This document shows, piece after piece, positions 45,304 through 58,044 of a stretch of DNA of 64,000 nucleotides. Under the pieces are notes generated by a model. That model searched no databases and was not told the origin of the DNA. It saw only the letters and a program-made list of their open reading frames with translations. The position numbers and the translations under genes are program-made. The stretch comes from a virus: positions 1-64,000 of the IMG/VR virus record IMGVR_UViG_3300025013_000002; one strand, written 5' to 3'. Each line of letters starts with the position of its first letter. Position 1 is the first letter of the stretch.

Positions 45304-45366
45304 CTTCAAATCTCCTTTTCCACATCCTCTGTGGATAACTCCTGTTAAATTTGTTAGTAAAGTTAG

Positions 45367-45385
45367 GCGCCCTGTGGTAGGGCGC
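45367..45385 (-). terminator. GC-rich hairpin, possible terminator
   Basis: GCGCCCT/AGGGCGC with a five-base loop, 18 bases after the stop of the gene ending at 45,403. Only a weak T-rich stretch follows on the minus strand. Confidence 0.55.
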
Positions 45386-45402
45386 GGTGAATAGCGGATT
45401 GC

Positions 45403-45771
45403 TTAGGATTTGTGCTTGAGCTTGTCGAGGACCGCCTGAGCCTTATAAACGTGGCAAGTGCAGTAGCGCTCCGGATTAGCGGTACGTTCTCCTCTACACT
45501 TGCAGGCAGGGTGATGAATGGAGGCAGCGGAATGCTCAAGCGCAGCCACCATTTCCTCGTGGTAGTTCAGGGCCAGCGCGATCAACTTGGCTCTCGCTTC
45601 GTCTTGCTCCTCAAGACCGTAGGCCAGCTTGTGCACCGTGGTGTTAGTAGTGGCAACCCAGTCAATCCCGGCTTCCGCAGTCTTGCCAAGCACGGAGTAA
45701 ACGGTGGTCTTATGCGCTGCTACCGGAAACTTGATGTTGGCTTGCTCGATTAATTCGGCGTAGGACTTCAT
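45403..45771 (-). CDS. Unknown protein with zinc-type cysteines
   Basis: 122 residues. Helical first two thirds, then HHPACKCRGER ... RYCTCHVYKAQ, a CxC...CxCH group likely binding metal. Unknown. Confidence 0.75.
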   Translation of the reverse strand: MKSYAELIEQANIKFPVAAHKTTVYSVLGKTAEAGIDWVATTNTTVHKLAYGLEEQDEARAKLIALALNYHEEMVAALEHSAASIHHPACKCRGERTANPERYCTCHVYKAQAVLDKLKHKS

Positions 45772-45772
45772 G

Positions 45773-46069
45773 TTATGCCTCCTTTTTGTTCAGATTCAAA
45801 ACTCCCAGTGTCCGGTCGTAGGTTTTCTGTAGTCCCTCGCCTAGAGGGTGATTCAGCAGGTGGTGGGCGTATTCGTTCAGGAGGCCCAGCAACTCCTCCC
45901 TCTCGTTCACGGCATCGCAGATCGTCTTAGCGATCTCCCTCGTTTCCTCATTCGTCTTGCCCTGGACCTCCGCGATGACTTCCATGTTATCAGTCAGGAT
46001 CTGCGTGGAGTCTACGAGGGTCTCGGCTATCATGACGAAATGAAGCGGCATTGAAATGTGAGATTTCAT
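45773..46069 (-). CDS. Helical protein, unknown function
   Basis: 98 residues from the ATG at 46,069, with AGGAGG 12 bases upstream across an A-run, which is a long spacing. Helical throughout (MEVIAEVQGKTNEETREIAK). A GTGA-N4-TCA(C/T)-type repeat overlaps the start codon (46,054-46,071). Confidence 0.7.
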   Translation of the reverse strand: MKSHISMPLHFVMIAETLVDSTQILTDNMEVIAEVQGKTNEETREIAKTICDAVNEREELLGLLNEYAHHLLNHPLGEGLQKTYDRTLGVLNLNKKEA

Positions 46070-46085
46070 TTTTTTTTTATTCCTC

Positions 46086-46151
46086 CTAGTTGAGCAGGCA
46101 AGCCTGCAAGAGTTCAACCAAAATTCTGAGTTGTTCAGGGTCGAGGTTCAT
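46086..46151 (-). CDS. 21-residue peptide
   Basis: ATG overlaps the upstream stop as ATGA, behind GGGGAG. Encodes MNLDPEQLRILVELLQACLLN. It may be a real micro-protein or a short coupling ORF keeping ribosomes on the message. Confidence 0.4.
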   Translation of the reverse strand: MNLDPEQLRILVELLQACLLN

Positions 46152-46351
46152 TTTTGGATCTCCCCTGTCGAGTAATAAACCTGGCCGTCGATCACGATCT
46201 GGTAGCTTTTGAGACCTTCGGCATCGGCCAGTTGCCTCATGTAAGCCTTAATCTGCTCGGTGCTCGAAATGTTGAACTCTCCACTGAATGGAACCCAGTT
46301 GTACTCACCAGGATCTCCGAGTATTTCGACGTAAGCGTAATGCTTGACCAT
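46148..46351 (-). CDS. Unknown small protein
   Basis: 67 residues from the ATG at 46,351 behind AAAGGAGAG. VKHYAYVEILGDPGEYNWVP is a recognisable phage-type opening; the fold is probably beta-rich. Unknown function. Confidence 0.72.
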   Translation of the reverse strand: MVKHYAYVEILGDPGEYNWVPFSGEFNISSTEQIKAYMRQLADAEGLKSYQIVIDGQVYYSTGEIQK

Positions 46352-46440
46352 TTGGCACTCTCCTTTACCTTGTTCTGAGAGCAAGGCACCCTCTTCCGGG
46401 GCTGTTTATCCACAAGTGAATGGGAATGTATATGTGAATT

Positions 46441-48408: not shown

Positions 48409-49011
48409 CTACTCCCCGAAGTAGAAGCAGCGGCAGTATTCAAGCACGATCTCTTCCTCCTCGGAAGTCAATTCAAGAGGTTCCCAAGGAGTGAACCAGT
48501 CCTGGTAGAAGATCTCGGCGGACTCGGGCTGGTTCCACTGACCGAGTTCCCCCTCGATCTTAACCGCAGGTCCTCCGGTGCAGAGTAGGATCTGGAACTC
48601 TTCGGCGGAGTGATCCTCCGAGCCGGGGCAATACCAACCCGAGCGGACCTGAACCGAGAGGGGATCTTCGTTGATACGCTGGCGAGCGTCGTCGGCGTCT
48701 TTGCACTCGCCTGCTTCGGCTTCGAGTTCGTCGAGTTCCTCCTGATTTTCTTCTTCCCAATCCGAGAGTGCTTTTTCCGCCTCGTCGTTAGCCTCCTTCA
48801 ATTCGAGGTAGCTGGCAGCCCTGAGGTTGCAGTTGTCCGCGTAATCCTTGAGATCTCTTGCAGCGGTTGTGAGTGTGTCGCGGAGATCCTTCTTCTCCTC
48901 CCTCAACTCCTCCAGCCGATCCCAATCCAAATTCAACGCCGCCACCATTTCCTTAATGGATTCAAACTGCGCTCGGGCCTGGTCTTTCGCTCTTTCGTTG
49001 TCGTTGCTCAT
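48409..49011 (-). CDS. Conserved phage protein with coiled coil
   Basis: 200 residues. An acidic coiled coil (residues 1-100) precedes PLSVQVRSGWYCPGSED, FQILLCTGGPAVKIEGEL and FYQDWFTPWEPL, a signature found in many phage and plasmid proteins of unknown function. The last part is acidic. Confidence 0.82.
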   Translation of the reverse strand: MSNDNERAKDQARAQFESIKEMVAALNLDWDRLEELREEKKDLRDTLTTAARDLKDYADNCNLRAASYLELKEANDEAEKALSDWEEENQEELDELEAEAGECKDADDARQRINEDPLSVQVRSGWYCPGSEDHSAEEFQILLCTGGPAVKIEGELGQWNQPESAEIFYQDWFTPWEPLELTSEEEEIVLEYCRCFYFGE

Positions 49012-53557: not shown

Positions 53558-53615
53558 GACCGCAGGTTTCCTCAGGTTGATTGCTTCGCAGGAGAACATG
53601 AGGAAACCTGCGGTC
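53558..53615. repeat. Large stem-loop element, copy 1
   Basis: GACCGCAGGTTTCCTCA pairs its exact complement 24 bases later. The loop (GGTTGATTGCTTCGCAGG ...) is nearly the same as in copy 3. It lies between genes and is not followed by a U-run. Confidence 0.8.
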
Positions 53616-55246: not shown

Positions 55247-55679
55247 TAATGAGCTTTTCTTTAACCAGTGAACCGATTGCCTCATGCCTCGCCTTTCTTA
55301 TCAGCGACACAACTATTAGCAGGACGGTCAGTATCTGGCGTTTAAACGGCCCTTCTGTTTAGATGTATGGTAGCACCTCCCCCGCTTCTTATCTCTCGAC
55401 TATAAGGGGATATTCCGCCTTTCCAATCTGTTACCTTGTACCGTCAGGCAGACTCCCATAGTTGGGGCCTCTGTCTGCAGTCATTTGGATTGATACAAGT
55501 CAAGGATCGAACGCGCTAAATCTTGTGCTGATCCTGTCGGCAATAGGTGACAGGTTCTAAGGTTTCGTGCCCTATAGCGGGACACTACTTTCTCCGTTTG
55601 GCATTTTGCTAGAATGCCTGTACAGGTGTCAAGCTGTACACGTCATGCCTCAATAGTCTCAATGAGCGGGGAAATGATA

Positions 55680-55740
55680 CAAGGGTCTTGCTCTGTAGCT
55701 TCTAGATCCTACACCTAGAAGCTACAGAGCAAGACCCTTG
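55680..55740. repeat. Perfect 26-bp inverted repeat
   Basis: Twenty-six bases beginning CAAGGGTCTTGC repeat in inverted form after nine bases. It lies 25 bases beyond the stop of the gene ending at 55,766, so on RNA it would form one of the strongest hairpins in the window. A competing smaller hairpin (AAGGCCCTTGCC/GGCAAGGGTCTT) overlaps its left side on the minus strand. Confidence 0.85.
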
Positions 55741-55765
55741 CCGGTTAGGGCAAGGGCCTTTGGCG

Positions 55766-56200
55766 CTAGGCAGAGGCACCGGCCTTTTTAGCCTCTTTCA
55801 TGGCTTTTTCCAGAGCTGCGAAAAGCCCCTCATTCCCTGCACATTTCGTCATGACGGCCTTAACGTAGCTGTCAACGTTGAACTCTTTGGTGCAGTTGGA
55901 GTTATCACCGCTGTTCCTGATGAAGTCATACAGCCTCTTGAGGAAGCGCCCACACTCGCCTTTGTCCTGAATAGCCTCGGTGTATTTCTCGGGAACGTCG
56001 CGGCCAGCCTGCAGCATGGCGTTGTGTACCGTGTGAACGTAGCCGGTTGCCTTTTCCGGCACGCCGAAGTGCGTTTCGATGGTGGAGATGGTATCCATCA
56101 TGCGGGTCTGTTGCGAGGCGTAGGCTTTGCTCTCTGCGTCAACGGTTTTCAGAATGGCGGTTCTAGCTTTGATACCCATGGACTCGATTTGCTTTTTCAT
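55766..56200 (-). CDS. Unknown helical protein, leftward gene at the switch
   Basis: 144 residues from the ATG at 56,200. Largely helical (IKARTAILKTVDAESKAYAS; ALEKAMKEAKKAGASA). The ribosome site is weak (GGGGTAT) and an 80-base leader with small hairpins separates it from its promoter, so translation may be regulated. Flanking hairpin and sequence style differ from the accessory genes. Function unknown. Confidence 0.7.
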   Translation of the reverse strand: MKKQIESMGIKARTAILKTVDAESKAYASQQTRMMDTISTIETHFGVPEKATGYVHTVHNAMLQAGRDVPEKYTEAIQDKGECGRFLKRLYDFIRNSGDNSNCTKEFNVDSYVKAVMTKCAGNEGLFAALEKAMKEAKKAGASA

Positions 56201-56284: not shown

Positions 56285-56313
56285 GTTATAACAGCTACCT
56301 TGTTTCAAGTCAA
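56285..56313 (-). promoter_or_regulatory. Leftward promoter at the strand switch
   Basis: TTGACT (56,308-56,313), 17-bp spacer, TATAAC (56,285-56,290). No palindrome of either family overlaps it, unlike most other promoters here. Confidence 0.75.
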
Positions 56314-56392
56314 CACTATTTTTCACATTTATTTTAAAATAATTATTCTTGTGTAAAACAAGGTACTTAGGCTGTTAATTCATATTAGGTAG

Positions 56393-56500
56393 CTCCCCTC
56401 GGTCGATCCCTACGACCTCCCCTCGGTCGATCCCTACGACCTCCCCTCGGTCGATCCCTACGACCTCCCCTCGGTCGATCCCTACGACCTCCCCTCGGTC
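56393..56500. repeat. 24-bp tandem repeat, 4.5 copies, at the strand switch
   Basis: The unit CTCCCCTCGGTCGATCCC plus TACGAC is repeated four times without a mismatch and is followed by 12 more bases, then a G-rich tract. It lies between the leftward promoter (56,285) and the rightward promoter (56,596). Identical tandem units of this length are typical of iteron origins or partition sites, but no initiator gene is next to it. Confidence 0.92.
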
Positions 56501-56572
56501 ACTGGGGGCGGGGTGAAAGTTTTAATGAGAGCCAGGCTCCCTTACCCATTCACACACACGCTACGAGTTAAA

Positions 56573-56586
56573 ATTCAGATGTACAT
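56573..56586. repeat. ATTCA-N4-TGAAT half-site
   Basis: ATTCAGATGTACAT, one good half, ten bases before the -35 of the rightward promoter, as at 58.2 kb. Confidence 0.55.
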
Positions 56587-56595
56587 ACTTTTATC

Positions 56596-56624
56596 TTGAC
56601 ACGTAGCGAGTAAAGTGTTAAGGT
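56596..56624 (+). promoter_or_regulatory. Rightward promoter at the strand switch
   Basis: TTGACA (56,596-56,601), 17-bp spacer, TAAGGT (56,619-56,624). Drives the gene at 56,655. Confidence 0.72.
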
Positions 56625-56654: not shown

Positions 56655-56981
56655 ATGGAACGAGTAAAAATTGGAGATAAATTTCACGCTTGGACAGTGA
56701 TAGCAGGCCCCATCATGAAGGGCAAAGGTCTCAAGTATTGGACATGCCAATGTGCTTGTGGGACTCAGAAGGAGATCCAGCAGTACTCCCTACTGAATGA
56801 CCGCACCCATAGTTGTGGGTGCCAGAAGGTTTTCTCCGAGGAAACTAGAAAGCTCCTGTCCGAACTCAGGAAACAGCGGCCCGCCCCAAGAGCTAAGGGG
56901 TTCACCCAGACTGAAGAGACGAGGGCGAAGATAAGCCAGGGTGCCAAACAAAGGTGGGAGGAGAGGAAGGCGCAGCCATGA
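56655..56981 (+). CDS. Homing-endonuclease-associated DNA-binding protein
   Basis: 108 residues behind AAAGGAG. VKIGDKFHAWTVIAG and YWTCQCACGTQKE ... SCGCQK form a zinc-type domain that often precedes HNH or AP2 domains in phage proteins. The C-terminus TEETRAKISQGAKQRWEE resembles a NUMOD DNA-binding helix. No nuclease centre is present, so it may be a remnant or a free DNA-binding protein. Confidence 0.7.
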   Translation: MERVKIGDKFHAWTVIAGPIMKGKGLKYWTCQCACGTQKEIQQYSLLNDRTHSCGCQKVFSEETRKLLSELRKQRPAPRAKGFTQTEETRAKISQGAKQRWEERKAQP

Positions 56982-57155: not shown

Positions 57156-57536
57156 ATGAAGACGATCATACGGAATCACCCAGCAACTTCCCAGGAAGCT
57201 ATCCAGTTCACCCAGCACCTCCTCCAGTCCTTCCCCATCACCACCAGAAGGCAGATCACCATCGAGTTCAGGTCTACTAACTCTATTGGGAGGGGGAATT
57301 GGGGCATGGCGCACGATTACAAATTCAACAACACGCTCTTTCTGGAACTGGCCCTTGGGACTTCCAAGGAACGCAGAGATCTCCAGGATCTCCTCCACAC
57401 AATTGCCCACGAGTACTGCCACGCGCTCCAATACGACCAGGAGAAGCCTGCATCCTGCACTGAGGCGGACCTCTTCGGAGACAAAGAGGTGCCCAAGTTT
57501 CTGGAGGAGAACCTGCGGATGAAAAAGGCTGCTTAA
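57156..57536 (+). CDS. Zinc metalloprotease-like protein (HExxH)
   Basis: 126 residues behind AAGAGGAG. LLHTIAHEYCHALQYD carries HExxH and a downstream EADLFGD supplies a likely third ligand. SprT-like or minigluzincin fold; whether it cuts proteins is unknown. The 175 bases upstream hold two copies of CCTGCTTCGCACTG and no gene. Confidence 0.8.
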   Translation: MKTIIRNHPATSQEAIQFTQHLLQSFPITTRRQITIEFRSTNSIGRGNWGMAHDYKFNNTLFLELALGTSKERRDLQDLLHTIAHEYCHALQYDQEKPASCTEADLFGDKEVPKFLEENLRMKKAA

Positions 57537-57980: not shown

Positions 57981-58044
57981 GCGAACCACAGGTTTCCTCA
58001 GGTGGATCGCTTCGCGGGAGAACATGAGGAAACCTGTGGTTCGC
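57981..58044. repeat. Large stem-loop element, copy 3
   Basis: GCGAACCACAGGTTTCCTCA pairs perfectly over 20 bp. The 24-base loop matches that of copy 1 except at a few positions. Compensating changes in the stem (CCGCAGG here is CCACAGG, and its partner changes too) show the pairing is maintained. Confidence 0.85.

What the first reader, a model, noticed from the sequence alone, without database searches (positions are those of the whole stretch)
56393..56500. Perfect 24-bp tandem repeats at the point where transcription diverges
Seen: four exact copies plus half a copy, between a leftward and a rightward promoter, next to a G-rich tract. Identical copies point to recent expansion or to strong selection. 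Known: iteron origins and partition sites use such arrays, usually at strand switches. Inference: replication origin, partition site or master regulatory array.
Basis: partly seen in the sequence, partly recalled or inferred. Interest (0 to 1): 0.7.

Follow-up and report, generated by a model that had tools for sequence, protein, structure and literature searches.

The report
Candidate iteron-type replication origin in phage
Between two divergent promoters of a large environmental phage lies a stack of identical 24-base repeats next to the most easily melted 60 bases of the available genome; four related phages keep the stack, its spacing and its neighbours while changing its sequence and copy number, which fits a DNA-replication start site best but is not yet proven.

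Summary
In detail: 4.5 perfect 24-bp copies at 56393-56500, between divergent genes and next to a G-rich tract. G000 is an 82.6-kb tailed-phage record (replication genes leftward, virion genes rightward). Three related lineages carry 24-bp arrays (4.2, 5.8, 7.6 copies) at the same place. Units differ between lineages but are identical, or nearly so, within each, so the arrays are homogenised. The core CCCTnGGTCnnnCCCTAC is kept. Another contig is identical to the window over 23,785 bp except for one extra 24-bp unit, so copy number evolves fast. The array abuts a 36-bp nearly invariant AT block lying in the least stable 60 bp of the record. Reading: iteron-type replication origin (0.45); rival: binding array of a local transcription regulator (0.33). 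Partition is disfavoured: no ParA/ParB domain was found. The GC-skew minimum lies 1 kb away but follows coding orientation, so it is no evidence for an origin. No known initiator was found, so membership among iteron-Rep replicons fails on that feature. Hairpin and co-variation ideas were tested and rejected. By-products: a ~480-nt conserved structured noncoding region next door, and a dyad ATTCAnnnnTGAAT at 37-47 sites per genome.

The parts
56393..56500 (.). 24-bp tandem array, 4.5 perfect copies; core CCCTNGGTCNNNCCCTAC; weak internal 12-bp half period (CCCT every 12 bp)
   Evidence: homologous arrays in L005/G001, L008/G002, L042/G008, L039/G009, L088/G010
56321..56356 (.). AT-rich block TTTCACATTTATTTTAAAATAATTATTNTTGTGTAA, same in four lineages except the N; holds the 14-bp palindrome TTATTTTAAAATAA (56329-56342); candidate DNA unwinding element (could also be an UP element)
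   Evidence: alignment of three lineages and L088; lies in the top-ranked 40- and 60-bp least stable stretch of G000, G009 and G002 and of the 6.3 kb of L088
56319..56327 (+). match to relaxed DnaA-box consensus TTWTNCACA (weak; not kept in G002)
56350..56358 (-). match to relaxed DnaA-box consensus TTWTNCACA (weak; kept in G009 and G002, changed in L088)
56504..56513 (+). G-rich tract GGGGGCGGGG at the array's right edge; length varies between lineages
56501..56596 (.). noncoding block at 93-94% pairwise identity to G009 and G002; unknown role (protein sites or leader)
56285..56313 (-). leftward promoter-like sequence TTGACT-17-TATAAC; TTGACx-17-TATAAC also in G009 and G002
   Evidence: read; not listed by the consensus scan
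56596..56624 (+). rightward promoter-like sequence TTGACA-17-TAAGGT (G002: TTGACA-17-TAGTCT)
   Evidence: read; not listed by the consensus scan
55766..56200 (-). leftward gene, 144 aa, no Pfam or PHROG match; helical, low-confidence model
56655..56981 (+). rightward gene, 108 aa, HNH-endonuclease-associated N-terminal region plus NUMOD3 motif

Best explanation
The array with its AT-rich neighbour is a phage replication origin of the iteron type. A phage-encoded initiator, not identified, binds the 24-bp repeats cooperatively as a stack of direct repeats. The wrapped complex melts the adjacent AT block (about 56317-56386), possibly helped by host DnaA, and the phage DnaC-like loader and DnaB-like helicase enter there and start replication, most likely in both directions. 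The divergent promoters on either side would couple initiation to early transcription. Copy number drifts by slippage or unequal recombination between identical copies, which also homogenises the array. Shown: the array, its conserved position, period and core, its copy-number variation, the unstable AT neighbour, the uniqueness of the locus, and the presence of loader, helicase, primase and polymerase genes. Inferred: the initiator, melting, replication start and promoter activity.
For: (1) Four lineages keep a 24-bp array at the same spot with the same AT block and flanks: 4.5/5.5, 5.8, 4.2 and 7.6 copies, although unit sequences differ (22, 16 and 17 of 24 shared with the window), with 14 core positions kept. 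(2) The block abutting the array lies in the most unstable 40- and 60-bp stretch of the 82.6-kb record, and ranks first in G009 (23 kb) and G002 (28 kb) too and in the 6.3 kb of L088. (3) The core occurs only in this array in G002, G008 and G009 at up to 2 mismatches, and the whole unit only here in G000 at up to 3: one dedicated locus. (4) The phage has its own fork genes: DnaB-like helicase, DnaC-like loader, primase, DNA polymerase. (5) Precedent: iterons plus AT-rich DUE define plasmid and lambda origins (PMC10797057), and the PLE satellite origin lies between divergent operons and needs its repeat (PMC7145576).
Against: No known initiator was found: no Bac_DnaA domain and no Rep_3 domain in G000, G008 or G002; the replication genes lie about 27-37 kb away. 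The GC-skew minimum at 57,460 is explained by coding orientation: fourfold sites do not show it and the minus-strand integrase gene in the right arm follows its own strand. The AT block starts just upstream of the leftward -35, where a promoter UP element would lie. DnaA-box-like matches are weak and not both conserved. Distant relative G005 (DNA polymerase 59% identical) has no tandem array at its divergence point. 24 bp is not a whole number of helical turns.
Confidence: 0.45

Rival explanations
1. The array is the binding site of a local transcription regulator that sets the balance between the two divergent promoters (an early switch or autoregulation), with copy number tuning its strength.
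For: It sits between two divergent promoter-like sequences, about 80 bp from the leftward -35 and 96 bp from the rightward -35; the AT block lies where an UP element would; the 96-bp block up to the rightward -35 is 93-94% identical between lineages; a degenerate copy of the phage-wide dyad lies just before the rightward -35.
Against: The core is not found at any other phage promoter; neither neighbouring gene is a recognisable repressor; unit divergence does not track that of the right-hand protein (89% identity with a 17/24 unit in L088, 42% with a 16/24 unit in G002).
Confidence: 0.33
2. A centromere-like partition site for a plasmid-like prophage state.
For: Tandem direct repeats at a strand switch; the contig map of a relative closes into a circle of 106,462 bp.
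Against: No ParB_N or AAA_31 domain in G000 or G008, with positive controls in 11 and 14 of 14 genomes; an integrase gene is present, pointing to an integrated state. Actin- or tubulin-type partition proteins were not searched.
Confidence: 0.06
3. A selectively neutral minisatellite made by slippage, with no function of its own.
For: Copy number differs by one unit with no other difference in 23,785 bp; in L088 two neighbouring copies share the same variant, the mark of tandem duplication.
Against: Position, period and 14 core positions persist in four lineages while the spacer next to it is only 53-60% identical; a neutral minisatellite would be expected to be lost, drift or move.
Confidence: 0.1
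4. Another DNA transaction site (packaging start or recombination site).
For: Phage packaging sites can hold repeats; terminase and recombinase genes exist; contig G008 begins inside the array.
Against: The terminase genes lie about 11 kb away; other contigs read straight through the array, so the G008 end is best seen as an assembly break.
Confidence: 0.06

Closest known systems
Iteron origins of plasmids (RK2, F, R6K) and phage lambda (four iterons bound by O)
   Same: Perfect or near-perfect direct repeats in a stack, next to an AT-rich unwinding element; helicase and loader genes in the replicon
   Different: 24-bp period (usual iterons about 17-22 bp, from memory); no Rep_3 or DnaA-type initiator found; not inside or beside the replication genes, whereas lambda iterons lie in the O gene
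PLE satellite origin (RepA_N iterons in a noncoding region between divergent operons; PMC7145576, PMC8263062)
   Same: Repeats in a noncoding region between divergent operons; units differ between related elements
   Different: PLE iterons are about 30 bp and semi-palindromic, with repA identified in the same element; here units are direct repeats without a conserved palindrome and no RepA was identified
Partition centromeres with short direct repeats (parC/ParR, tubC/TubR)
   Same: Direct repeats; the weak 12-bp half period recalls 10-12-bp centromere repeats (from memory)
   Different: No ParA or ParB domain; ParM and TubZ not searched

Membership tests
Iteron-type replication origin | Tandem direct repeats of constant length and spacing | tested here: met
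Iteron-type replication origin | Adjacent AT-rich, easily melted segment | tested here: met
   Least stable 40- and 60-bp stretch of the record directly beside the array
Iteron-type replication origin | Cognate initiator (Rep_3, DnaA-like or other) encoded in the replicon | tested here: not met
   PF01051 and PF00308 absent; other or unknown initiator families cannot be excluded, and G000 is a partial record
Iteron-type replication origin | DnaA boxes at the origin | tested here: inconclusive
   Two relaxed matches flank the AT block in the window, but they are not both conserved
Iteron-type replication origin | Replication starts there | not testable with these tools
   Needs infection time-course sequencing; GC skew proved uninformative
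ParABS partition site | ParA and ParB encoded in the element | tested here: not met
ParMRC or TubZRC partition site | ParM or TubZ filament protein encoded in the element | not tested
   No search with these families was run
Operator array of a transcription regulator | A DNA-binding regulator that recognises the unit | not testable with these tools
   No recognisable repressor next to the array; binding needs an experiment

The most novel reading that the evidence does not exclude
The array is the origin of a large environmental phage lineage and is bound by an initiator of a family not yet described, with the unit evolving in concert within each phage so that related phages come to need their own initiator.
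Probability: 0.25. Interest if true: 0.6.

Novelty: new member of a known kind. Interest (0 to 1): 0.45.

Why it matters
Origins of most large phages are unmapped. A compact, recognisable origin candidate conserved in four lineages, with a one-unit copy-number variant on an otherwise identical sequence, would let the initiator be fished out directly and would show how repeat-based origins diverge. If it is regulatory instead, it is the switch at the main strand divergence of these phages.

Tried and rejected
(a) GC skew as evidence for an origin: the cumulative minimum is near the array (57,460; G008 minimum at its array-side end, maximum at 48,672), but the signal sits in codon position 1, is absent or reversed at fourfold sites and follows strand in the integrase gene, so it reflects coding orientation. 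(b) Repeat hairpin GGTCG/CGACC in each window unit: absent from the other units, rejected. (c) Array as coding repeat: no ORF of 30 aa or more crosses it and flanking indels are not multiples of three. (d) Co-variation of the unit with the right-hand zinc-ribbon/NUMOD3 protein: suggested by three lineages, rejected by the fourth. (e) Dam sites (GATC) in each unit: absent from the G002 and L088 units. (f) A general array in the wider lineage: G005 has inverted promoter repeats at its divergence but no tandem array. (g) 12-bp arrays in G008 and G009 a few kb to the left: G008's overlaps an ORF with DSVW-type repeats and looks coding. (h) Structure prediction: left protein too poor (pLDDT 49); right protein gave no significant PDB match. 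(i) No bacterial genome contig carries two adjacent cores, and none encodes the left protein; the host is unknown.

Full report
What was checked. The array is real: four perfect copies and a half of CTCCCCTCGGTCGATCCCTACGAC at 56393-56500, the only tandem array TRF reports in the window, absent elsewhere in the 82,561-bp record at up to 3 mismatches. The record is a tailed phage with replication and recombination genes running mostly left (DNA polymerase, primase, DnaB-like helicase, DnaC-like loader, SbcCD-like, ligase) and terminase, portal, capsid and tape-measure genes running right. Its DNA polymerase is a distant relative of those of T5-like phages, at about 28% identity. The array lies between a leftward 144-aa gene and a rightward 108-aa gene, with promoter-like sequences on both sides that I read by eye; the consensus scan did not list them.

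Relatives. A pattern scan for the unit found contig 3300025309_000054 (G001). It is identical to the window over 23,785 bp apart from one extra 24-bp unit. Copy number is thus the only difference between two assemblies; whether these are two phage variants or an assembly difference cannot be settled from contigs, though arrays of 108 and 132 bp fit within ordinary reads. Protein and core-motif searches found three diverged lineages: G002/G008 (4.2 copies), G009 (5.8 copies) and G010 (7.6 copies), each with a 24-bp array in the same place. Units written in the same register are CCCTCGGTCGATCCCTACGACCTC (window), CCCTCGGTCGATCCCTACGTGCTC (G009), CCCTCGGTCACACCCTACAGCTCG (G002) and CCCTAGGTCACACCCTACGACATG (G010). 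Copies are identical within the window, G001, G002 and G009; in G010 two neighbouring copies share one variant. This is concerted evolution by tandem duplication and loss, with a retained core CCCTnGGTCnnnCCCTAC. A weak 12-bp half period (CCCT every 12 bp) is visible by eye and by TRF in G008.

Neighbourhood. Left of the array is a 36-bp block that is the same in four lineages except for one position. By nearest-neighbour energies the stretch holding it is the least stable 40 and 60 bp of the whole record, and it ranks first in G009 and G002 and in the 6.3 kb held of G010. For 100-bp windows it ranks second in G000 and G002 and first in G009. Right of the array is a 96-bp noncoding block with 93-94% pairwise identity. 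The 30-bp spacer between AT block and array is only 53-60% identical, so conservation is patchy and specific.

Interpretation. Direct repeats of fixed period plus the most easily melted DNA of the record, at a single dedicated locus in a phage that has its own helicase, loader and primase, is the anatomy of an iteron origin (PMC10797057; PLE precedent PMC7145576). I commit to that reading at 0.45. The main weakness is that no initiator was recognised and that an AT block just upstream of a -35 box also suits promoter control; hence 0.33 for a local regulator. Partition is unlikely without ParA or ParB. A neutral minisatellite is unlikely given the conserved core and position.

Skew. The cumulative curve does turn near the array, at 57,460 in G000, and in G008 it runs from a minimum at its array-side end to a maximum at 48,672. 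But the signal comes from codon position 1; fourfold-degenerate sites show the opposite sign in the rightward arm (-0.171 on the plus strand) and almost none in the leftward arm (+0.025), and the minus-strand integrase gene within the rightward arm behaves as its own strand predicts. The skew therefore reports gene orientation and neither supports nor refutes an origin.

Map of a relative. G002 and G008 overlap exactly at both ends (23,084 and 1,068 bp without mismatch), closing a map of 106,462 bp with the array at the G008 end. The genome is therefore circularly permuted or circular in the cell; G000 is probably a fragment of a similar genome.

By-products. The noncoding stretch 55280-55765, just left of the leftward gene, folds far better than column-shuffled controls in a four-lineage alignment (z about -12 on one strand and -14 on the other), with 25-26 compensatory pairs against about 8 in shuffles; without its 26-bp hairpin z is still about -5 to -7. 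It matches no Rfam family at gathering threshold, and only sub-threshold microRNA-type and sRNA models below it. A dyad ATTCAnnnnTGAAT occurs 37 times in G000 and 47 times in G008 at up to one mismatch, against about 2 in mononucleotide shuffles, mostly outside ORFs and often within 10-80 bp of a start codon; it is not enriched in G005-G007.

Noticed in passing
window 55280-55765: About 480-nt conserved noncoding stretch with strong covarying structure in four lineages, including a 26-bp hairpin at about 55681-55740 whose arms co-vary; no Rfam family; strand undecided. Candidate new large phage RNA.
   Followed up: partly
window 2572, 14646, 14676, 21820, 28688, 51238, 58160, 58190, 58271, 61103 and others: Dispersed dyad ATTCAnnnnTGAAT, 37 sites in G000 and 47 in G008 (about 2 expected), mostly intergenic, near ribosome-binding sites or between -35 and -10: likely a phage-wide operator (stoperator-like).
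   Followed up: partly
window 51231, 53101, 53887, 54985, 55153, 55230: Second dyad type TGTGAAnnTTCAC(A/T) within about 4 kb left of the array (the 55230 site has a one-base spacer).
   Followed up: no
window 53559-53614 and 57985-58040: Two about 56-bp inverted-repeat elements around CCACAGGTTTCCTCAGG, about 91% alike, with similar copies in the relatives; L088 565-775 has a 69-bp tandem array of a similar element.
   Followed up: no
window 45316-46414: Three DnaA-box matches (TTTTCCACA, TTATCCACA, TTATCCACA) within 1.1 kb; no such cluster among the G008 matches.
   Followed up: no
L074 11900-12400 (G005 about 91.9-92.4 kb): Distant relative's divergence point has near-identical promoters in inverted orientation (43-nt perfect inverted repeat) instead of a tandem array.
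   Followed up: no
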